Below the pieces are notes generated by a model. It was not told the DNA's origin. It was given only the letters and a program-made list of their open reading frames with translations, and ran no database searches. Of a stretch of 64,000 nucleotides of DNA, positions 1 to 61,600 are shown piece by piece. The stretch's first letter is position 1; each line of letters starts with the position of its first letter. Source of the DNA: Eledone cirrhosa (Eukaryota > Mollusca > Cephalopoda > Octopoda > Eledonidae); contig OZ024744.1 of the NCBI GenBank assembly GCA_964016885.1, forward strand, positions 68,600,278 through 68,664,277. The letters run 5' to 3'. The position numbers and the translations under genes are program-made.

Positions 1-588
1 ATGTCACGTACTTAGCTCAACATGAACTGTCTCTCCTCGCCCTATGTTTCACTCTCTGATTATGTAAGAAATTATTATTATAAGCGATAGAACGACAGAA
101 AGTACAGAACGCCGGGTTAGATATCTGATGTATTTTTATTTTTCAGTATAGAAATCATACTTGTGGAGGAGGTTGACGATGATTTTCATGCATTCAATCT
201 AAATAACAAAAATAATAGTACCAGTTATATACCACAACCTGTGCCGGATTTACCATTGTGATTAAGTGTGCTTAAGCACAGGGCCCCATTGACTAGGAGA
301 AGAGGCATCTTCCTGCCAGAATATTTTTTTTACCTCCTTCTGGGACCAAGTAAGGGGCTTGATAATTTACTAGATCAGCGCCTCATTTGTCCTAAATCCA
401 TTACTGACCATAAGCTATTCAATTGAATGTACGTCTTCTGCAAATATGTAGTTCTAGCTTATGAAAGAAATGCATAGTACTGAATTAATCGAATTGGATA
501 TAAACCTGAAATTGAAACTGTCCGTGAAGCCGAGTCAACAAATCAAGAAGTTTAAAACACTAGAATTGTTTTCAACCCGCTGACGTGT
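1..588. other. No recognisable feature
   Basis: AT-rich single-copy-looking DNA. I see no long open frame, no SINE body and no tandem repeat in it. Confidence 0.5.
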
Positions 589-654
589 ATGTGTATATGT
601 GTCTGTGTTTGTGTATGTGCATATGCATACATTTATATGTATGAGTATATAAAT

Positions 655-960
655 ATTAACGCGCAAACAGACATACATCCACACAAACATACATACACAC
701 AAACACATACTTACATTCCTACAAACACACATTCACACAAACGCACACATACATTCACACACACATATACATACATTCACACAAACACACACAACACACA
801 CACAAACACATACATACATTCACACATACATACACACAAACACATACATACATTCACACAAGCACATACATTCACACAAACATACATTTTCACAAACACA
901 GGCACACACATTTACACAAGCACACACAACACATACAACACATACAGTCATACACAGCGT
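655..960. repeat. CA-rich microsatellite (ACACAY/CATA)n
   Basis: Imperfect array of acaca and cataca units. Open frames across it on both strands are low-complexity (H, T, Y on plus; C, V on minus) and are not genes. Confidence 0.9.
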
Positions 961-1119
961 AGCCAATGGAACACCAACCACTATTTTGCTATAGTTTTTT
1001 CACTATCCCCTTTCTTCCTTTTACACACACATACATTCACACAACACACATTGTGTGACGGACGGAAGTCGCTCAAATTTATATATAGACATATAGGCAT
1101 TTTTAGTCAGCAGATGAGT

Positions 1120-1320
1120 AGTAGATCGGCGGAATCGGATGAAAGGCATTGCAACATTTCGTTACTGACTTCTACGTTCTGGCTCAAATACCGCCCAGCT
1201 TAAATTTGCCTTTCATCCTTCTTGGATCGATAAATCAAAATACCAGTAAAATATTAGGGTTGATCTAATCAACATTCCGAAACATTGCTAGCCTTGTGCC
1301 TAAATTAGAAATAATTTTTA
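1120..1320 (+). mobile_element. tRNA-derived SINE, diverged copy
   Basis: The plus strand contains a B-box-like 'ctggctcaaat', then 'tttgcctttcatcc', 'gatcgataaa', 'taccagtaa' and the 3' 'ttgtgcc' motif. An upstream 'gcaacatttcgt' stretch resembles the second octopus SINE head type. It is heavily diverged and so an old insertion. The head derives from a tRNA; it is not a functional tRNA gene. Confidence 0.65.
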
Positions 1321-1384
1321 CTCAGTAGAAATGATGATGATTCTAGAAATAATTTCTTTTATTGGCAACAAGGGCCAATAAAAA

Positions 1385-1540
1385 AAATAGTTTTTGCATT
1401 TGGCACAAAGCCAGCAATTTGAAAGTCGATTAAATAGACCCCGGTGCATTATTGGTATTTTATTTCATCGACCCCGCAAGGAAAAAAGGAAAAACCTCAG
1501 CGGAATTTGAACGCAGAACGTAACTATAATAGTTATTTCT
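1385..1540 (-). mobile_element. tRNA-derived SINE, diverged, truncated
   Basis: Reverse-orientation copy showing 'ggcacaaagccagcaattt', a 'tcgattaaat' insert, 'tttatttcatcgacc' and 'cggaatttgaacgcag'. The 5' head is lost. Confidence 0.7.
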
Positions 1541-1739
1541 TTATTGATCACTAGGGCCGAAACATAGTGGATACCCCCCCCCCAAAAAAAAGGGTTAGTA
1601 GAGATTAAAATATAACGTGTAAAAAATTTTAACAACTAACGTTTAACAGCAAATTAATAATAACAAAATTTCCCCAATAAAACGGAGTACAAGCCAAGGG
1701 TTAACTTAGGAATTACACAGATCTTAAAACACCCTAATG

Positions 1740-1972
1740 TCTGATGGTGGTGGTGGTGGTGGTGATAGAAGTACTTTTGTGTTTGGCCGTGCTTTCTGTT
1801 ATGGGTGTTCAATATGATAGAACTTGACAGTGGCGGGAAATCAAGTTCATGCATACCTCCCGTTGCACGTGGTTATTGGTTTTGGTTTTGGTTTTGGTTT
1901 TGGTTGTTGTTGTTGTTGTTGTAGTCATCACTGTTGTTATTGCTGGTATTGTTACTGTAGCTACTGCTGCTC

Positions 1973-2011
<39 letters not shown>

Positions 2012-2025
2012 CTGTTGCTGCTATT
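1740..2025. repeat. Compound microsatellites
   Basis: (GGT)n at about 1742-1763, then (TTTTGG)n at about 1877-1903, (TTG)n at about 1903-1923 and (CTG)n at about 1974-2005. The trinucleotide units keep several frames open (poly-V, poly-C, poly-A, poly-S), which explains overlapping ORFs on both strands. Confidence 0.85.
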
Positions 2026-2367
2026 GATGGTTGTGTCTGTATTGGTGATGGTGACATGGTGACATAGTGACATGGTGATGCCGGTTGACAGCTGGCTGTT
2101 CTGACTTGCTTACAGCTCGCTGGTTAAATCACCAGATGAAATTTTGTCGTCAACCATCATATTTTGCAAACAACTGAGGGGTGCACTTGGAAAACAAACA
2201 CAGATTTAGTCGTAAGAGCTACAGATGGAGGAAAACTGACCAGCTCACAAAAGTACTGGTTAGTTCAATTATAAAACAATATCAAATGTTCAACAAAATA
2301 GGCTAGATAACAATGGTATAACAGACGTACGAGAGATATTTGAATACGTGTCGAGAAAAGAACGACC

Positions 2368-2368
<1 letters not shown>

Positions 2369-2451
<83 letters not shown>
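2369..2451. repeat. (AGT)n trinucleotide repeat, about 27 units
   Basis: Nearly pure agt repeat. It translates as poly-S on plus and poly-L on minus. It sits directly upstream of, and in frame with, the LINE remnant at 2455-2780. Confidence 0.95.
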
Positions 2452-2454
2452 ATA

Positions 2455-2842
2455 TCATCATGAAAAATGGAACAGATCGGACATGTAGCCTTATAGATAT
2501 TTCCGTACCAGCTGAGAAGAATACATCTATAAAAACAATAGAAAAACTGTCAAAATACAAAGACCTGGAAATAGAAATCAACAGGATATGGAGGAGGCCC
2601 ACAAATACTATCCCTGAGCATTAGGATTAATACCTTAATCCTCAGGCCTGCACCCTAGAGTCCTTCCCTGCAAGATCAGCAAATATGAGCTACAGAAGAT
2701 CAGGCTACTAGGAACAGCACACATTCTCAGACGAGTTATCTCTCTACAATGAAAACATCTATTGCCCTAGATTCAAAGCCTGAACCTGGCAACAGAGAAA
2801 CAGAACTGAACTAAACTAAATAACACAACAATGATAATAATA
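2455..2842 (+). pseudogene. LINE ORF2 C-terminal remnant
   Basis: Plus-strand frames read RTCSLIDISVPAEKN, then KLSKYKDLEIEINRIW, then after frame changes KYELQKIRLLGTAHILRR. These blocks, in this order, are the conserved extreme C-terminus of many animal non-LTR retrotransposon polyproteins (a 'lIDvavP...KyqdLe.E...mW...LGTahIlR' pattern, from my knowledge of the family). The stop after PTNTIPEH and later frame changes make it a dead fragment. Everything upstream is missing and replaced by an (AGT)n tract. The 3' half is repeated in inverted orientation at 2885-3110. Confidence 0.65.
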
Positions 2843-2884
2843 ATTATAATTATGATTATAATAATGATTTCTTTATAATTATTA

Positions 2885-3110
2885 ATATCATTGTTGTGTT
2901 ATTGTAGTTTAGCTCAGTTCTGTTTCTCTATTGCCGCGTTCACGCCTTGAATCTAGGGCAATAGATGTTTTCATTGTAGAGAGAGAACTTGTCTGAGAAT
3001 GTGTGCGGTTCCTAGTAGCCCAATCTTCTGTTGCTAATATTGCAGATCTTTCAGGGAAGGACGCTAGGGTGCAGGCCTGAGGATTTGGGTATTAATCCTA
3101 ATGTTCACAA
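2885..3110 (-). pseudogene. Inverted copy of the LINE 3' tail
   Basis: Reverse complement of about 2630-2842, sharing for example 'ggcctgcaccctagagt' against 'gctagggtgcaggcctg' and 'gcaatagatgttttcattg'. Minus-strand translation gives IGLLGTAHILRQVLSLQ, matching the plus-strand copy. The two arms face each other across about 40 bp of AT-rich DNA. Confidence 0.75.
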
Positions 3111-3218
3111 AGGGTTTACAAAAAAAACGCATTAAGGACAGCACAGGACGGTACAGGACGGTACAAATATGGGTTTCTGCGTGTACAAAAAGAAAACAAC
3201 AACAACAATAATAATAAT

Positions 3219-3418
3219 GATTTCTAGTATAGGCTCAAAGCCAGTAATTTGGGGGAGGAGAAGTCGATTTAATCGACCCCAGTACATTACTGGTGCTTTA
3301 TTTTATCGACCACGTAAGTATGAAAGGCAAAGTTAACCTCGGCGGGATTTGAACACAGACCGTAAAGGGACGTAATTCTGTGCTGTAAAGCATGGCGTCC
3401 AACTCTCTACCGATACTA
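3219..3418 (-). mobile_element. tRNA-derived SINE
   Basis: Almost full-length reverse copy: 'ggctcaaagccagtaattt', 'cattactggtgctttatt', 'cgaccacgtaagtatgaaa', 'cctcggcgggatttgaac', 'gcatggcgtccaactct', 'taccgatact'. It carries the extra 'aagtcgatttaatcgac' segment seen in several copies here. Confidence 0.85.
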
Positions 3419-4010
3419 ATAATAATATAAGCTGCAAAAGCAACCTCAGTAAATAATGAAGTTACATGAATTGAATTTCAAGACGTAAAATAAATGTCTG
3501 TTTAAAATTAAACAATTGTACATTCATTGTGCTATATACCACGTGGAAGTGATAAATAGTTTTCAGAAATTGTACCAATATTGTATCAGAAACCAAAATC
3601 TTTAAAAATAACTTTTTTTTTTTTTTCAACGGTCTCTTGGGATTCTGAAGATAAACAGAGAACAGAGGGGCAATAGAGAAAGATAGATGGATAGCTAAAG
3701 CATTTTTTTTTCAGATAGATATATAACCAAATAGTATGATATAAGGGATATAGAGGGATAGAAGTTAATACACACCCGCAGTCCATACATACATAGAGGA
3801 AGTGTTAGTGAGTGAGAGAAGAAAGTAGGATGAAGAGGGGAATAGAAAGGAAGGAAGTCTAAAATACACTGTAAGCATTATATAACATAATTTAGTACAC
3901 GTATACTTGTATTGATGCATAACATATTATATACAGTCAAACATATAAACATGCCCACATTCACATACATCATATATATATTTTTTCTTTCTCTATCTTT
4001 AACTCCCTTA

Positions 4011-4810: not shown

Positions 4811-4844
4811 AATAATAATTGATAACTATGAATAATAGTTGAAT

Positions 4845-5589: not shown

Positions 5590-7485
5590 TATATGACCTA
5601 ATAAATCTAGTTAAGAACATTAAATACAAAAAGCATCGTAATAGAAACAACACCTTCTTAAACAAACTTAACTCCACTATTAAAGGATTCAATACAAATA
5701 ATAAAATTATAGTACATGCAGATAAAACTAATAATATATATAGCCTATATTATGATATATATAGAAAATTTATATATAAAGAACTACATAGGAAAACTAC
5801 TATTAAAAACATAGAAGATATTAATTTGGAAGGCCGTAGTATAGTGTGTAAATTGGGACTTCAGAGACATACACAGCCATACACCCCTAACCCCCTAAGA
5901 TTCTCTCTGAAGGACCATAAGGAAGAGTTCATTAGTAACCCTTTGATAAGACTAATCTGCCCTTCCAAATCTGACATTGGTATTATCAGTAAGAAAATTT
6001 TAGATAAAATTATCCACAGATTAAGCACAAAATATATCTTACCAGTGGGGAAATACAGGTTAAGTTATTGAATGGTTTAAGGATATTAAAGAGAACAAAA
6101 ATAAAAAATTTATACAGTTTGATATCAATTCATACTACACCTCTATTTCCCCTATCCTATTAAATAAGGCACTTATTAATGGCCATGAACAATAGTGACG
6201 TGACTAGATCCCAGATTGACGTCATACTTGCAGCCCGAAAAACCATAATTACACTGAAGATCAATTATGGACCCGCAAGGATACGCATAACAACTTTGAC
6301 ATAACTATGGGATCTAGTGACTCGGCGCAGGCCACTGATGTGGTCGGCCTATATCTACTAAATGAAATCCATAAAGAACTACCATACCTCAACGGTGGTT
6401 TATACCGCGATGATGCACTACTCCTTATAGACTATAAAAATTTAATATAGAAAGTACTAGGAAACTATTACATAAAATTTTCAAAAACTTCAACTTAAGT
6501 ATCACCATAGACAAAAACATTAAAAATGTTAACTTCCTTGATGCTACCCTTTACCTAGACTCTAAAATAAACCTTTCATAAACCTAACGAAAAACTAATT
6601 TATGTAGATACCAAGTCTAACCACCCTAAATCCATATTAAATTCAATCACTAAAGGAATATCTAATAGAATCTCTAATCTATCTTATAACGAAACCATAT
6701 TTAACAACAATTCACAGTACTATAATCAGGCATTAGCTAAATCAGTCCATAATAATAGGATTGAATTCCTACCTATAAAATCACATAGTTACAACATTAT
6801 TTCTCTCAATATGGCCATGAGGAAAAATAATAATAAGAATAATAGCCACTCTTGCTCCAATACGGAGGGTAGTATCAAACTTAACTCGCACCAAAGTAGA
6901 CACCAAAATTATATTATAAACAGAAATACCTCAATATATATTATAAAAAACAAAAATAGAAGAACTAATACATTTTTCAATCCCCCTTTCAATCTAAACA
7001 TCTCTACCAACTTACCTAAGGTTTTCTTCTCAATCCTAGAAAAAGATTTCCCATCTGGCCACAAATACCATAATCTTATAAATAAAAATACCATTAAAAT
7101 CTCTTACTCTACCACACCTAACATAGCATACCATATAGCTAGTAGTAATAAAAGAAAGATTAATACTTATTTTCAACAAATTAAAACACAGCAGAAGGTA
7201 AACTTTCAGAACAACATAATAACTATAAACCCTAATAGAAATAGTAATAATAGAAATAACACTTATGAAATCAATAACATTAGGAACGACAACCATCATA
7301 GCCCTAATACTAACCCTAGCAACCAGACTTCTACACAACATAATAACCGGCAAGATAACATCCAAAATAAATGCAACTGTAGATCAAATAGAACTTGCCC
7401 TTTAGGTAACAACTGCTTAATCAAAGACATCATTTACTCCTGCACAGTCAAGACTAACGACTCTTCTTTAAATATTAAATATTAA
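5590..7485 (+). pseudogene. PLE-1: Penelope-like reverse transcriptase, degraded
   Basis: Plus-strand frames, joined by several frameshifts and stops, cover most of a PLE reverse transcriptase. In order: an N-terminal 'VHADKTNNIY' block (about 5715), 'LRFSLKDHKEEF' and 'CPSKSDIGIISKKILDKI' (about 5895-6010), motif A 'FIQFDINSYYTSISP' (about 6115), motif B 'GSSDSAQATDVVGLY' (about 6310), motif C 'GGLYRDDALLLI' with the catalytic Asp pair intact (about 6395), 'VNFLDATLYLD' (about 6530), and the linker 'KVFFSILEKDFPSGHKYHN' (about 7018). A Cys-rich 'CNCRSNRTCPLGNNC' knuckle that normally precedes the GIY-YIG endonuclease is present at about 7372-7416. The endonuclease itself is missing: the frame stops shortly after and runs into AT-rich tandem repeats. 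PLEs are retroelements that use a GIY-YIG nuclease to prime insertion. This copy is non-functional because of frameshifts and the missing nuclease. Confidence 0.85.
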
Positions 7486-29399: not shown

Positions 29400-29690
29400 T
29401 ATATATATATATTTATATATTCTGAAAATTAGGAGTGCCTGTATTTGTATCGTTCTGTATCACTATGTATTTTTCTTTAAGTATAGTTCTTTCAAAGAAC
29501 CCCCTTTCGTTAAATACATCAGCCAATGACCTCCACCCATCCCAATAACCACCTTTCCCTACCGCCATAACATATATAAATACCACCATAACACATTGAC
29601 AGTCGGCTTCCCTGATGATTTCCTTCGAATGAAACAGTTCTAGTCCTGTAGAAGCCATTTCTATATTAAATAAATAAATATATATATATG
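29400..29690 (+). mobile_element. Penelope-type non-coding fragment with hammerhead
   Basis: Non-coding DNA ending in 'ctatattaaataaataaata' after the ribozyme motif at 29605-29656. Position and layout resemble the PLE arms elsewhere. It lies directly after the Helitron 3' end. Confidence 0.45.
29605..29656 (+). ncRNA. Hammerhead ribozyme motif with 4-bp stem III
   Basis: Stem I GGCTTC/GAAGCC (6 bp, with one unpaired C before the core), core CTGATGA, T-flanked stem II TTC/GAA with loop CTTC, GAA, stem III ACAG/CTGT with an 8-nt loop, then A at the cleavage position (29650). A longer stem III than the other copies. Confidence 0.65.
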
Positions 29691-29818: not shown

Positions 29819-30207
29819 TTAAACACTGAAAAAAAAGTCAAAGATAGTTTGTTAATTAGTTCATTATTTTACGATCGTTTCAGAGGGTTGATTGATCATA
29901 GTAGATCGATATATTGACTAGTAGTGTCTAGTCTCGAAATCCGTATATGTGTATATGTATATATGTTAGATGGCGCTACGCTATCAGTTTTCAAATTCAT
30001 ACCTGAAGGCTTTCAAAATAATTATTAATAAACATACCGCATGTCGCCGGATATACAATTTCACGTGTATCATATATACATATATTTATATATATATATA
30101 GTTAATTTTTGCTGCACCGGCAATATCTCTGTATAATCAGCTCCTGATTATTACTAGAATTCTATAAGAATCCAGCTTCTATAATTTTCGGCGGAAGAGG
30201 GCAGTAC

Positions 30208-30252
30208 GTAGCTCTGATGATTGCCAACAGCATGAAACAGTATGTTAGCTTC
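30208..30252 (+). ncRNA. Hammerhead ribozyme motif, repeat unit 1
   Basis: Stem I TAGCT/AGCTT gives 4 bp (AGCT/AGCT). Core CTGATGA 30214-30220, stem II TGC/GCA with T-T at its base and loop CAACA, GAA 30234-30236, stem III ACA/TGT with loop GTA, T30246 at the cleavage position. The T-T base of stem II replaces the usual G-C and may lower activity. Confidence 0.7.
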
Positions 30253-30521
30253 TCTGCTTTCTTTCGCCGAAAAGAAGTAAGTGACATAGTCACTACTTTA
30301 AAAATGATAGCGTAATGTCTTCAAAATGTTTTCAATTAAATATACGGTATATTGCCAAATATACTATATATACATTCATGTATACATCGCTATTTCAGAA
30401 CACCAATCCTAATACTTAATTTTTGCTGGACCGGCAATTGCTCTGTATAATCAGCTCCTGATTATTACTGGAATTCTATAAGAATCCAGCTTCTATAATT
30501 TTCGGCGGTAGAGGGCAGTAC

Positions 30522-30566
30522 GTAGCTCTGATGATTGCCAACAGCATGAAACAGTATGTTAGCTTC
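30522..30566 (+). ncRNA. Hammerhead ribozyme motif, repeat unit 2
   Basis: Identical to unit 1 through the whole motif. Predicted cleavage after 30560, exactly 314 nt from the unit 1 site, so self-cleavage would release a 314-nt monomer. Confidence 0.7.
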
Positions 30567-30835
30567 TCTGCTTTCTTTCGCCGAAAAGAAGTAAGTGACA
30601 TAGTCACTACTTTAAAAATGATAGCGTAATGTCTTCAAAATGTTTTCAATTAAATATACGGTATATTGCCAAATATACTATATATACATTCATGTATACA
30701 TCGCTATTTCAGAGCACCAATCCTAATACTTAACTTTTGCTGGACCGGCAATTGCTCTGTATAATCAGCTCCTGATTATTACTGGAATTCTATAAGAATC
30801 CAGCTTCTATAATTTTCGGCGGTAGAGGGCAGTAC

Positions 30836-30880
30836 GTAGCTCTGATGATTGCCAACAGCATGAAACAGACTGTTAGCTTC
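30836..30880 (+). ncRNA. Hammerhead ribozyme motif, repeat unit 3
   Basis: Same core and stems. The only change is in the stem III loop (GAC in place of GTA), which leaves ACA/TGT paired. Predicted cleavage after 30874. A loop change that keeps pairing fits structural constraint. Confidence 0.7.
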
Positions 30881-31021
30881 TCTGCCTTCTTTCGCTGAAA
30901 AGAAGTAAGTGACATAGTCACTACTTTAGAAATGATAGCGTAAGGTCTTCAAAATGTTTTTAATTAAACATACGGTATATTGCCAAATATACTATACATA
31001 CGTTCATGTATATAATAGCCT

Positions 31022-31198
31022 ATGTTTCTACTTTTGGCACAAGGACACCAATTATCCCAGTGCTTTATTTTATCGACCCCGTAAGATGAAAAGCAAAGTT
31101 AACCTCGGCAGGATTTGAACTCAGAACCTAAAAGGCCGTAACTCTATGCTGCAAAGCATGGCGTCCTACCCTCTACCGATAATGCCAATCCACCATAA
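31022..31198 (-). mobile_element. tRNA-derived SINE, small internal deletion
   Basis: 'tgtttctacttttggcacaa', 'tttattttatcgaccccgta', 'ggcaggatttgaactcaga', ending 'ctctaccgataatgccaatc'. Confidence 0.9.
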
Positions 31199-31592
31199 TA
31201 ATAATAAAAGGACGATTTGTTATATCTTCATTGCGTTTATTGATTGGTGAAGCGCCTTTCGCTATTGAGCAGCTGTGGGTTCGATCTGTATCGATCTGGC
31301 CCGACTCTGGATGAACCTACAATAACTGCACGTTACACACACACACACATATATATATATAAAAATATATATATTCATTTATTTATTGATTTATATATAT
31401 AATGCATGAGATAACGAAGTTTCATTTCATTTTTAAATATTTATATTCCATATCGAATGTTACATATCTTTCGCAGATGATCGACTCAAGGTCTTAATCA
31501 ATATGATAGACCTGAAACCAGTATCGATCTGCTCATCAAATGCATAGATTTAAATCAAAACATTACCACCTCACTGTCTGTCTATCTGTTTG

Positions 31593-31979: not shown

Positions 31980-32300
31980 TACATACAGGTACACATATAT
32001 ATATGTACGTATCGGTTCAGCGGACGTTTATTATAACGCCCGCTTTGTCCGTTTGTAAAGAAACGGACAGTCTGATTTATGCCGTACGGTGTTAAGGCAA
32101 CCACGTCACCTTTTTGTTCAACACTGACACAGGAACGATGTACTAGTTTCAAGCTTCTTAGCTATCATCAGCACCGTATACCCTTCTGCCAGATGGTTGA
32201 ACGTTCGAAAGTATATACTTTCCTTATGAAAATAACGACTGAGCAGCCTAATTTGCATATCGAGTGAGTTCAGTCGGCCAGGCGCACCGAAAACGATAAG
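31780..32300 (-). mobile_element. Hammerhead-bearing repeat, copy C (about 520 bp)
   Basis: From 'gaatgaaacgaaattttatt' through a (TA)n insert (31885-31972), 'gacggacagtctgatttatg'-type sequence and the ribozyme (32135-32177) to 'cggccaggcgcaccgaaaac'. A second unit follows immediately in the same orientation (copy D), so the two form a tandem of about 520-bp period. Confidence 0.75.
32135..32177 (-). ncRNA. Hammerhead ribozyme motif
   Basis: Minus strand: stem I ACGGTG/CATCGT (one G-U pair), core CTGATGA, T-flanked stem II AGCT/AGCT with loop AAGA, GAA, AC-TA-GT, A. Core complete. Confidence 0.7.
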
Positions 32301-32713
<413 letters not shown>

Positions 32714-58308: not shown

Positions 58309-58497
58309 GGTGGATTGGCAGTATCGGTAGAGGGTCGGACGCCATGCTTTGACGCATAGAGTTACGGCCCTTGCCATTCTGAGTTCAAAGCCCGCCAAGG
58401 TTAACTTTGCCTTTCATCCTCATGGGGTCGATGAAATAAAGTACCAGTAATGCACTGGGTAATTGCTGGCCTTGTGCCAAAAGTAGAAACAATTATT
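58309..58497 (+). mobile_element. tRNA-derived SINE, full length, tandem copy 1
   Basis: 'ggtggattggcagtatcggt' to 'gccaaaagtagaaacaatta'. A partial 'gtggattggcggtg' precedes it at 58291. Confidence 0.95.
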
Positions 58498-58499
58498 AT

Positions 58500-58688
58500 A
58501 GTGGATTGGCAGTATCGGTAGAGTGTCGGACGCCATGCTTTGAATCATAGAGTTACATACCTTTATGATCTGAGTTCAAATCCCGCCGAGGTTTAACATT
58601 GCCTTTCATCCTTACGGGGTCGATAAAATAAAGTACCAGTAATGTACTGGGTAATTGCTGGCCTTGTGCCAAAAGTAGAAACAATTAT
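58500..58688 (+). mobile_element. tRNA-derived SINE, full length, tandem copy 2
   Basis: Starts 'gtggattggcagtatcggta' 2-3 bp after the end of copy 1, same orientation, and differs at several head positions ('tgaatcatagagttacatac'), so it is a separate insertion and not a fresh duplication. The RTE 3' end abuts on its right. Confidence 0.95.
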
Positions 58689-58689
58689 T

Positions 58690-61600
58690 ATATTCTTGGT
58701 TGTCCATCGTAAACGATGATGACATCTTCTTTACTTTAGTTCCCGTCTGCCATGGGCACGAAGGTGGCTGTGGAAGCCGATCCTTGACTTGCAGGTCCAG
58801 GGACAGTGGAGGCAGGCGAAGAGACCGGAGTCGCTGGGGGCAGCTGTTGATGCCTTTCTCCTCCTTTCACGGGCCTCAGTGACCTCTGCCCGTCTCTTCT
58901 CTTCAAAAGAGTGTTTGGTGCGTCTAATAAGGGCTCGCCACTCAGTCCTGTCCTGAGCATACGACTCGAGTTGTTTTGGAGCGATTCCAGTGTTGTTGAT
59001 ACTGGACTTCACGCAGTCTTTGAACCTCTTGAGAGGCCTGCCCCGCTTTTGTTTCCCCGAACATAGTTCCCCATACATCAGTTGCTTCGGAAGCCTGTGA
59101 TTGTCCATCCGGATGACATGTCCCACCCATCGAAGTTGGTTCTTCAGTATCATAGCTTCGACACTGGTTGTCTCAGCTATGTCAAGAACTTCGAGGTTGG
59201 AGACCTTGTCCTGCCATTTGATGTTCATTATTGACAGCAGGCTTCGCATGTGGAATCGTTCCAGGTGCCTTCTGTACAGGGTCCATGTCTCACACCCGTA
59301 GAGGAGTCTGGTGAGAACAACGGTCCTGTACACCTTGAGCTTGGTGGACTACCTGATGTTGTACTGGTTCAGGACGCGTGTCCTCAGGCGGCCGAGGGCT
59401 TGACTGGTCTTGCAGATCCTGGCATTTATCTCCTTGTCGAGGCTTCCATCGCTGCTGATGACACTGCCGAGGTACTTTAAGTCGTCCACCGTCTTTAGTT
59501 GGGTGCCTCCGATGGAGATGGAAGAAGGCTGGGTGACGGAGGCAGGTACAGGCTGGAACAGGACCTCAGTCTTGCCAAGGCTAATTGTGAGACAGAAGAG
59601 ACAGGAGGCCTCCGCGAACTTTCTGACGATGACTTGGAGGTCAGACTCCCTGTGGGCCATGATGGCACAGTGGTCAGCAAAAAGTGCCTCCAGGACGATC
59701 CTCTGCACTGCCCTTGTCTTGGCCGTCAGGCGCCGCAGATCAAACAGGGAGCCATCCAGTCTGTATCGCTGATACACTCCGTGCTCGAGGTCCCTGATGG
59801 CATGATTGATCACGCAGGTGAAGAACAGGTTGAAGAGGACGGGAGCCAGCACGCATCCTTGCTTGACGCCGTTGGTGATTCTGAACGGCTCCGATGCCTC
59901 TCCGCCGAGCGCACCTGCCCGGTCATGTCGTCATGGAATTGCTGTATCAGGTTCACGAGCTTTGTCGGGCATCCAAACTTCGACAGGATCGACCAGAGGG
60001 CCTCCTGTTGACAGTGTCGAATGCCTTCGTCAAGTCTATGAAGACGGCAAAGAGGTCCATGTTCTGCTCGACACACTTCTCCTGCACCTGGCGTACAGAG
60101 AAGATCATGTCGATCGTGCTGCGGTTTGGGCGGAACCCACACTGCGCCTCAGGCAGGTTGTCCTCCGAGTTGTTGGCGATGAGGCGGTTGAGCATGACCC
60201 GAGCCAGGACCTTCCCAGCAATGGACAGGAGAGAAATGCCCCGATAGTTGCCACAGTCAGTTTTGCTGCCTTTGTTCTTAAAAAGCGAGAGAACTGTGGC
60301 ATCCCTGAAGTCTTTGGGCACCTCTACTTCCTCCCATATGCTGACGAGGAGGGCGTGGAAGGCCGACAGGGCAGCTAGACAGGCTGACTTGAAGATCTCG
60401 GCAGGAATCCCGTCCTTCACAGGGGCCTTTCCTGAGCTGGTCTGGTTCGATTAGTTTCGTGACTTCATCCAACGTGGGGGTGGCGGGAGTCGAGGCTGCC
60501 GACTACGGGCTTCTGTGGGACCTGGTCGAGGGCGGCAGGGTCGACAATGCAGGGCCTGTCGAGCAAGTTGCTGAAGTGCTCTCACCACCTCGAGTTGATG
60601 CTGCTCTTCTCCTTCAGCAGGATCGAGCCGTCAGCAGACAGCAGCGGTGTGATGACAGGCTTGGAGGGGGGGGGGTCCGTAAACGTCCCTGATGGTTCTG
60701 AAGAACATCTTGGAGTTCTTTGTGTCAGCGTATCTCTCGACTTCTTCGGCCTTCTTTTCCCACCTCTTGTCCTTCATTCTGCGTAGCGCTGCTTGGGTCT
60801 GCCTCTGGAGGTGCTTGAAGCGGTCGCGCTTCGAGGTGGAGAAGCTGTCATTCTGCCACTCAATGAAAGCCCTCCTCTTCTCGTCCAGGAGTTGTCTGAT
60901 GCGCTCATAGTTTTCATCAAACCATTCCTGGTGGACTCTCTTCCTCGGCCCGATGGTTGCCTTGGCTGACTCTGTCACCAGCGACCTGAACTAGTCCCAC
61001 TGTTAAGTTGGGGTCCTGTTTGTGGTCCATGGGCAGTCAGCCGGCCGTCCAGGTCTCCCGCGAACGCATCACGATGCTCTGGCTGGTTGAGTCGTGCGAC
61101 GTCGAAAGCTGGCCTACAGACTTTTGGAGTCTTGCGATGCGTCGTGGTGATGTGCAGTGACAGGATGGTCCTGACATGGCGATGGTCAGTCCAACACTCT
61201 GCACCACGCATGGCCCTGGGGATTCTGACGTCACGGATGACCTTTCTGTGGCATATGGCAAAGTCAATCAGATGCCACTGTTTGGATCTGGGGTGCATCC
61301 ATGTCGTCTTGAACTTGTCTGCCTGGCGGAACAGTGTGCTGGTGATGGTGAGGTCGTTCTCGGCGCAGAAACTCAACAGTATGAGGCCGTTAGAGTTCAG
61401 CTTCCCTGTGCCATGAGGTCCCAGCACGTCTCTCCAGTTGCTGCTATCAGACCCGACTCTTGCGTTGAAGTGCCCCAGTAGGATGAGTTTATCGCCTGGG
61501 GGTCGCCCTCCACGAGTGCGTTGAGTTCCCCGTAGAAAGCGGCCTTTTCTTTATCGCTGTTGGTGAGGGCGTACGCGCTGATGACTGTGACATGCCGATA

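What the first reader, a model, noticed from the sequence alone, without database searches (positions are those of the whole stretch)
29985..31010. Candidate retrozyme: 314-bp tandem units, one hammerhead each
Three head-to-tail units with an exact 314-bp period each carry a type I hammerhead: AGCT stem I, CTGATGA, stem II, GAA, ACA/TGT stem III, then a U before the cleavage position. Predicted cleavage sites at 30246, 30560 and 30874 would release 314-nt monomers. There is no ORF. The unit 3 change falls only in the stem III loop and keeps pairing. Size and layout fit retrozymes and ribozyme-bearing satellites of animals. I know of no named family with this sequence, but could not search.
Basis: partly seen in the sequence, partly recalled or inferred. 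Interest (0 to 1): 0.88.

Follow-up and report, generated by a model that had tools for sequence, protein, structure and literature searches.

The report
Hammerhead retrozyme with Penelope-type insertion ends
Three 314-letter repeats, each holding a self-cutting RNA motif, belong to a large family of tiny mobile elements in this animal genome, and the way the copies end suggests they are pasted in by the machinery of Penelope-type jumping genes, a link that had been suspected.

Summary
The array is real: 2.9 head-to-tail units of 314 bp at 30098-31012, each with a type I hammerhead core at the stated cleavage sites (29985-30097 is at best an older, weakly similar piece). Genome-wide the unit is a dispersed family (4,827 places for one 27-bp segment). 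In 68 aligned ribozyme regions the core is conserved above the rest and two base pairs differ on both sides between subfamilies, so I take the hammerhead as genuine, although no Rfam hammerhead model reports the window copies. A 20-bp outer stem I belongs to it. The new point is the anatomy of insertions. Copies end at two 3' sites 27 bp apart; 34 of 61 records are head-to-head inverted pairs; in 23 of the 26 pairs with both ends readable, one arm carries the 27-bp 'tail' and the other does not; 35 of 43 tail-side flanks are AT-rich. These are published marks of Penelope-like retrotransposons, whose GIY-YIG endonuclease domain abounds in this genome. Best reading: a new animal retrozyme family, inserted by Penelope machinery from ribozyme-processed or multimeric RNA. 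Cleavage, circular RNA and the partner element remain untested.

The parts
30098..31012 (+). Tandem array of 2.9 retrozyme units, period 314 bp (30098-30384 partial, 30385-30698, 30699-31012)
   Evidence: Tandem Repeats Finder; identities
30184..30274 (+). Type I hammerhead region of unit 1; predicted cleavage after 30246
30498..30588 (+). Type I hammerhead region of unit 2; predicted cleavage after 30560. Outer stem I 30499-30518/30568-30587; inner stem I 30524-30527/30561-30564; core CTGATGA 30528-30534; stem II 30536-30538/30544-30546; GAA 30548-30550; stem III 30551-30553/30557-30559
30812..30902 (+). Type I hammerhead region of unit 3; predicted cleavage after 30874; carries the family-type stem III loop
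30388..30414 (+). 27-bp 'tail' between the two alternative 3' end sites, here internal between units 1 and 2
   Evidence: end mapping; 4,827 places genome-wide at <=2 mismatches
30702..30728 (+). 27-bp 'tail', internal between units 2 and 3
31012..31015 (+). 3' end of the array at the family's tail-less end site (site 1)
30098..30100 (+). 5' end of the array, at unit position 28, abutting AT-rich DNA; four other single-arm copies (L009, L057, L060, L061) start at the same position
29985..30080 (+). Possible older diverged fragment of the same or a related unit, directly upstream
   Evidence: weak: score 32 v shuffled maximum 30

Best explanation
A non-autonomous retrozyme. Transcripts of the tandem units fold a type I hammerhead, cut once per 314 nt (perhaps best when two units pair as a double hammerhead), and give unit-length RNAs that are ligated into circles or remain as multimers (inferred from relatives, not shown here). 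A Penelope-like RT/GIY-YIG endonuclease, supplied in trans, cuts both strands of AT-rich target DNA and starts copying the RNA internally from both cut ends, at two start sites 27 nt apart; the two cDNA arms meet head to head, each truncated at its 5' end. Shown by sequence: conserved and covarying hammerhead, two 3' end sites, head-to-head pairs with mostly one tail per pair, AT-rich flanks, presence of PLE genes. Inferred: cleavage, circularisation, and that PLE machinery acts on this RNA.
For: Dispersed family (tail pattern 2377+2450 places, reversed control 0; ribozyme pattern 123+133 places at <=3 mismatches, control 0). Hammerhead: core intact in 49 of 68 copies, core 97.5% conserved v 93.7%; 94.4% of pair cells paired, against 92.9% in shuffles and 43-58% when slid; 28 cells with both-sided changes v 10.4 shuffled, 0/500; C-G 47/G-C 14 in outer stem I and U-A 50/C-G 11 in stem II. 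A sibling copy (L051) matches Rfam Hammerhead_HH9 in the right register, 20.0 bits, E 0.0046 for 101 bases (below gathering). Ends: two sites; one tail per pair in 23 of 26 readable pairs, random pairing P 1.7e-4. Tail followed by flank 43 and by the next unit 43 of 86; 35 of 43 flanks AT-rich v 16.7% background. Similar marks are described for PLEs: head-to-head inverted pLTRs, a 31-bp tail optionally on one of them (PMC3846280, passages), two internal RT start sites in an AC-rich stem loop, both strands cut and extended, AT-rich targets (PMC11167929). PLEs present: 150 GIY-YIG matches scored, all over cut-off, of 8,204 candidates; a 784-aa stop-to-stop RT+GIY-YIG frame between repeats that look like pLTRs, with a further inverted one.
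Against: No Rfam hammerhead model reports the window copies, even in a 106-base search; U.U at the base of stem II and a 3-bp stem III. The nearest-neighbour minimum-energy monomer fold is not the hammerhead (median gap 7.2 kcal/mol). Two measures of covariation do not exceed shuffles (pairs with a both-sided change 5 v 4.9; further pair types 29 v 28.9), and the both-sided changes come mainly from one subfamily split. No PLE sharing the unit's sequence was found; the PLE inspected has no CTGANGA on its sense strand. In the anole PLE, hammerhead mutants did not affect insertion in vitro, so ribozyme action need not be part of insertion (PMC11167929). Arms of inverted pairs are hardly more alike (mean 91.7%, 11 comparisons) than arms of different loci (90.0%), though in 3 of 11 the arms match each other as well as or better than any other arm. 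TSDs could not be read in AT repeats. No copy began at the hammerhead cleavage site (0 of 24), but that sample was chosen for complete ribozymes.
Confidence: 0.76

Rival explanations
1. The unit is the solo pseudo-LTR of an autonomous Penelope-like element, dispersed without its ORF, rather than a circle-forming retrozyme.
For: Tail, inversion and target preference are those of pLTRs (PMC3846280); PLE pLTRs carry hammerheads (PMC11167929); one unit copy lies about 0.7 kb downstream of a PLE fragment (L064).
Against: Of 86 tail occurrences in 61 records 43 run into the next unit; the other 43 flanks, as printed, show no recurring sequence by eye beyond AT repeats, whereas a pLTR would sometimes run on into an ORF. 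tblastn with the PLE protein found only weak matches (25-27% identity) in 3 of the 19 9.5-kb unit loci (L012, L018, L025). Codon positions after the ATG inside the ribozyme show no coding pattern (91/52/61 changes).
Confidence: 0.15
2. The ribozyme is a relic: the family spread in the past, the sequenced copies no longer cleave, and the hammerhead plays no present part.
For: Monomer folds favour a non-hammerhead pairing; 19 of 68 copies have a damaged core; copies differ by about 10% in the ribozyme region.
Against: Core conserved above the rest; covarying pairs; neighbouring window units 96-98% alike; a dimer of the family-type copy L016 is predicted to fold nearly as a double hammerhead.
Confidence: 0.25
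3. A foldback DNA transposon whose inverted arms happen to contain a hammerhead-like string.
For: 34 of 61 records have inverted arms.
Against: 27 of 61 have no inverted partner detected at the threshold used; arms are truncated at variable inner points, the two outer ends usually differ by a 27-bp tail, and multi-unit arms share a 314-bp period. No transposase was looked for.
Confidence: 0.03
4. Ordinary satellite DNA with a chance hammerhead.
For: Tandem layout; Rfam silent on the window copies.
Against: Copies are mostly dispersed, of one to two units; conservation and covariation of the ribozyme.
Confidence: 0.02

Closest known systems
Animal non-LTR retrozymes (Cervera and de la Pena 2020, PMC7229834), for example mussel units of about 350-390 bp and axolotl Rtz_353 with HHR_Amex2
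   Same: Type I hammerhead, tandem units of a few hundred bp, low GC, thousands of copies; U.U at the base of helix II as described for HHR_Amex2
   Different: No sequence comparison with those families was possible; the family-type stem III here is a near-palindromic ACAGACTGT; head-to-head pairs with a one-sided tail were not mentioned in the parts of that paper that I read (abstract, Results parts 1-2 of 3, Discussion)
Penelope-like elements and their pseudo-LTRs (PMC3846280, PMC11167929)
   Same: Head-to-head inverted copies, optional tail of about 30 bp on one of them, AT-rich targets, hammerhead; the tail here holds an A/C-rich stretch
   Different: No RT/EN ORF in the unit; after the tail the sequence returns to the unit itself or stops, instead of entering an ORF
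Newt and salamander hammerhead satellites (as told in PMC7229834)
   Same: Weak helix III; a dimeric ribozyme is possible
   Different: Not compared in sequence or insertion anatomy

Membership tests
Animal non-LTR retrozyme | Type I hammerhead in each unit | tested here: met
   sequence and covariation; activity not testable
Animal non-LTR retrozyme | Tandem units of about 150-450 bp | tested here: met
   314 bp; arms over one unit long in many loci
Animal non-LTR retrozyme | GC under 50% | tested here: met
   35.0% for unit 2
Animal non-LTR retrozyme | No coding capacity | tested here: met
   no ORF of 50 aa inside the array; no codon-position pattern
Animal non-LTR retrozyme | Absence of LTR, PBS and PPT | not tested
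   no specific search made
Animal non-LTR retrozyme | TSDs longer than 4 bp when present | tested here: inconclusive
   flanks are mostly AT repeats
Animal non-LTR retrozyme | Expressed as linear and circular RNA | not testable with these tools
   no RNA reads available
Rfam Hammerhead_1 (RF00163) | Score above gathering threshold | tested here: not met
   window copies:
Autonomous Penelope-like element | RT and GIY-YIG ORF in the element | tested here: not met
Mobilised by Penelope machinery | Head-to-head inverted copies | tested here: met
   34 of 61 records
Mobilised by Penelope machinery | Tail of about 30 bp on one arm only | tested here: met
   23 of 26 readable pairs (8 of 34 unreadable); P 1.7e-4
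Mobilised by Penelope machinery | Insertion in AT-rich DNA | tested here: met
   35 of 43 tail-side flanks v 16.7% background
Mobilised by Penelope machinery | Shared recognition sequence with a resident PLE | tested here: inconclusive
   none at E 1e-3 in the PLE parts of L064-L068, besides the retrozyme copy in L064; L064-L066 reach only about 1.5 kb from the GIY-YIG match

The most novel reading that the evidence does not exclude
Animal retrozymes are parasites of Penelope elements, and their insertion is two-headed: the enzyme copies the small ribozyme-made RNA from both cut strands at once, using one start site on one strand and the other, 27 nt away, on the other strand, so that nearly every event leaves exactly one tail. 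Arms longer than one unit would come from copying round a circle. This family would then be a genomic record of how Penelope integrates.
Probability: 0.48. Interest if true: 0.8.

Novelty: new member of a known kind. Interest (0 to 1): 0.6.

Why it matters
The enzyme that moves animal retrozymes has been an open question; PLEs were named a 'strong candidate' on shared hammerheads, tandem layout and co-occurrence (PMC7229834). A retrozyme family whose insertions carry the PLE end signature turns that into a testable claim, with thousands of natural insertions from which start-site use, strand asymmetry and template form can be read.

Tried and rejected
Rfam models: no hammerhead in the window at gathering, at E<=10 on 1.6 kb or on 106 bases; the miRNA, snoRNA and other matches there are below gathering and were ignored. 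A coding reading of the ATG inside the ribozyme (27 codons, my reading of the sequence) was rejected on codon positions. Linear, hammerhead-cut monomer as template: no 5' end at the cleavage site in 24 single-arm copies (table typed), but the sample is biased towards complete ribozymes, so this is undecided. Same-template test of the two arms: inconclusive. The PLE at L067/L068 as partner: no match to the unit at E 1e-3 and no sense-strand CTGANGA. A suspected autonomous partner at C2:60.58 Mb proved to be a tandem array with no frame over 115 aa. An exact 25-base piece of the tail was not found in viral contigs or genome contigs (those notes say that the window's own or very near genomes may be left out). 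Papers: nine searches; five of the lists were capped at 12-15 of 28-3,669 papers and at 8 of 10, and no listed title describes this family. By-eye pairing (21 tail/no tail, 3 tail/tail, 0 none/none of 24, with 7 of 31 pairs set aside; significance) was replaced by a fixed rule (23 NT, 2 TT, 1 NN of 26). Rule and eye differ: L012 (eye TT, rule NT), L053 (eye NT with a deleted tail, rule NN), L014 (eye NT, rule unreadable), L037 (eye unreadable, rule NT); L064, L072 and L073 were added later. Dropped as unreadable by the rule: 8 of 34 inverted records (L010, L014, L033, L049, L054, L056, L063, L073). On rereading, the odds were changed slightly (best explanation 0.78 to 0.76, novel case 0.50 to 0.48, solo-pLTR rival 0.13 to 0.15) because the flank test was two-way by construction and because the anole PLE inserts without ribozyme action in vitro.

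Full report
Observation. Tandem Repeats Finder gives one array here, 30098-31012, period 314, 2.9 copies, 97% matches, 0% indels. CTGATGA..GAAAC occurs three times in the array, and six times in the window against 0.16 expected. Predicted cleavage positions 30246, 30560 and 30874 are correct for the motif. No ORF of 50 aa lies inside the array; one of 54 aa overlaps its end.

Is the hammerhead real? No Rfam hammerhead model reports the window copies. The evidence therefore comes from relatives in the same genome. Two searches with the unit gave 68 and 90 matches, 40 candidates scored of 2,578 and 2,587. In 55 records (54 loci and the window) a 116-bp ribozyme query had 97 matches; 68 covered it almost completely, in 54 of the 55 records, and were aligned; 29 partial ones were dropped. 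In these 68, eleven core bases plus a permitted H17 are intact in 49; mean conservation is 97.5% in the core and 93.7% in the other 79 columns (permutation p 0.009). For a structure with a 20-bp outer stem I, a 4-bp inner stem I, a 3-bp stem II and a 3-bp stem III, 94.4% of cells pair, against 92.9% in shuffles and 43-58% when partners are slid by 1-3 columns. Cells with both-sided changes number 28 against 10.4 in shuffles and the covariation score is 0.108 against 0.086 (0 of 500 each); the number of pairs with such changes (5 v 4.9) and of further pair types (29 v 28.9) is not above shuffles. The signal is mainly two pairs, C-G/G-C (47/14) in outer stem I and U-A/C-G (50/11) in stem II, which separate two subfamilies; it is compensatory but represents few events. 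An independent model, Rfam Hammerhead_HH9, matches the sibling copy L051 in the right register below its gathering score (20.0 bits; E 0.0046 for 101 bases; E 1.2 when 26.9 kb were searched) and both arms of L038 more weakly (18.6 bits, E 3.4); in the other six of the eight loci given to no retrozyme copy drew a hammerhead match at E<=5. I conclude that it is a genuine type I hammerhead with a U.U at the base of stem II, as published for axolotl Amex2 (PMC7229834).

Monomer or dimer? Energy folding of the 91-93-nt region is far better than shuffles (z -3.1 to -6.8, six sequences), in good part through the long stem I, and the optimum pairs core bases with the stem III strand; the hammerhead lies a median 7.2 kcal/mol above the optimum in 68 copies. 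Of five sequences tried as dimers, only the family-type copy L016 has an optimum in the double-hammerhead arrangement, and that with one extra pair next to the cleavage site; the window units do not. Dimer action, known in newts and axolotl (PMC7229834), is therefore possible and untested.

How copies end. With the unit numbered from 30385, outward 3' ends mostly fall at about position 3 (after ..CATTCAT/GTATACAT) or 30 (after ..CCAATCCTAATA), 27 nt apart. Of 61 records (54 loci, L064 and six taken from the tail list) 34 are head-to-head inverted pairs and 27 show no inverted partner at the threshold used; at least one of the latter, L032, has a short inverted tail piece at its 5' end that the rule misses. 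With a fixed rule 26 of 34 pairs have both ends readable: 23 tail/no tail, 2 tail/tail, 1 none/none; random pairing gives 23 or more with P 1.7e-4. L064 (reached through GIY-YIG) and L072 (from the tail list, which presupposes a tail) are both tail/no tail; the other 24 readable pairs come from the unit searches. Of 86 tail occurrences (<=4 edits) in 61 records (here the window instead of L064), 43 run into the next unit and 43 into flank; 35 of those 43 flanks are at least 10/12 A+T in their first 12 bases, against 16.7% of background 12-mers. The tail pattern occurs at 4,827 places in the genome (<=2 mismatches; 0 for the reversed pattern); a 37-base ribozyme pattern at 256 (<=3 mismatches). 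Many copies therefore probably lack the ribozyme by 5' truncation, or have diverged or carry the one-base loop variants that the pattern misses.

What this resembles. [quoted passage not shown] A purified anole Penelope protein cuts and extends both strands, prefers AT-rich DNA and starts reverse transcription at two adjacent internal sites in an AC-rich stem loop; the tail lies between the two sites (PMC11167929, parts 1-2 of 4). That paper saw no difference in start site between strands in vitro; the one-tail-per-pair pattern here would need such a difference or a co-ordination in vivo. It also found that hammerhead mutants do not affect insertion and suggests that unprocessed RNA is the main substrate, so the ribozyme's part may lie before insertion. 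Metazoan retrozymes were proposed to be moved by LINEs or PLEs, PLEs a 'strong candidate' (PMC7229834: abstract, Results parts 1-2, Discussion; also PMC7761336, passages). The present genome holds PLEs: 150 GIY-YIG matches scored, all over cut-off, of 8,204 candidates, and a locus which I read as inverted pLTR, pLTR, a 784-aa stop-to-stop RT+GIY-YIG frame and pLTR. No PLE sharing sequence with the unit was found, so the partner is unknown.

Template form. Arms longer than one unit (for example L022, L041, L042, L044) require a multimeric or circular template. Five of 24 single-arm copies, the window array among them, begin at position 28, beside 3' site 2; this fits one full turn of a circle but also AT microhomology, and the sample was picked for complete units. 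I mark it as suggestive only.

Organism. The flanking SINE-like sequences look cephalopod to me (recalled, not tested). Giant squid is reported with 235 'hammerhead 1' loci (PMC6962438, passage); an Octopus vulgaris repeat annotation names Penelope families and its main text does not contain the words ribozyme or retrozyme (PMC13282606, passages). Nine paper searches listed no paper on this family by title; several lists were capped, and the library lacks most subscription papers, including the 2014 and 2017 papers on PLE hammerheads.

Verdict. A new family of a known kind (animal retrozyme), with structural evidence, new as far as I could search, that Penelope machinery inserts it.

Noticed in passing
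window 32146-32171 (-) and 32688-32713 (-): Second hammerhead-like family, CTGATGATAGCTAAGAAGCTTGAAAC, at 6,858 places genome-wide (<=1 mismatch, control 0); among the 100 places listed many are spaced about 470-560 bp in tandem, and a 4.9-kb piece (L075) is a tandem array with no frame over 115 aa. The 32688 copy sits between inverted arms 32457-32630/32751-32924, 97% complementary, and has a matching stem I strand; the tandem copies seem to lack one (by eye). Unexplained.
   Followed up: partly
window 29612-29635 (+): Another hammerhead-like core with flanking GGCTTC/GAAGCC arms, about 0.5 kb upstream of the array; possibly a Penelope fragment (guess).
   Followed up: no
L012:1847-1891 (+): Rfam Hammerhead_1 at 31.7 bits (gathering 34), E 2.6e-4, about 2.5 kb from the retrozyme copy in the same locus; Penelope-type minimal hammerhead by its look (recalled).
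   Followed up: no
L067, L068 (G000 C1:182873500-182884500): Apparently near-complete Penelope-like element: inverted repeat, direct repeats like pLTRs around a 784-aa stop-to-stop RT+GIY-YIG frame, ending in AT repeats.
   Followed up: partly
L045:386-993: One of the two tail/tail pairs; the flanks just outside its two tails are identical in inverted orientation, so this locus may have arisen by inverted duplication.
   Followed up: no
window 58310-58692: 192-bp tandem duplication of a SINE-like sequence whose reverse complement is also seen at about 31040-31200 (by eye).
   Followed up: no
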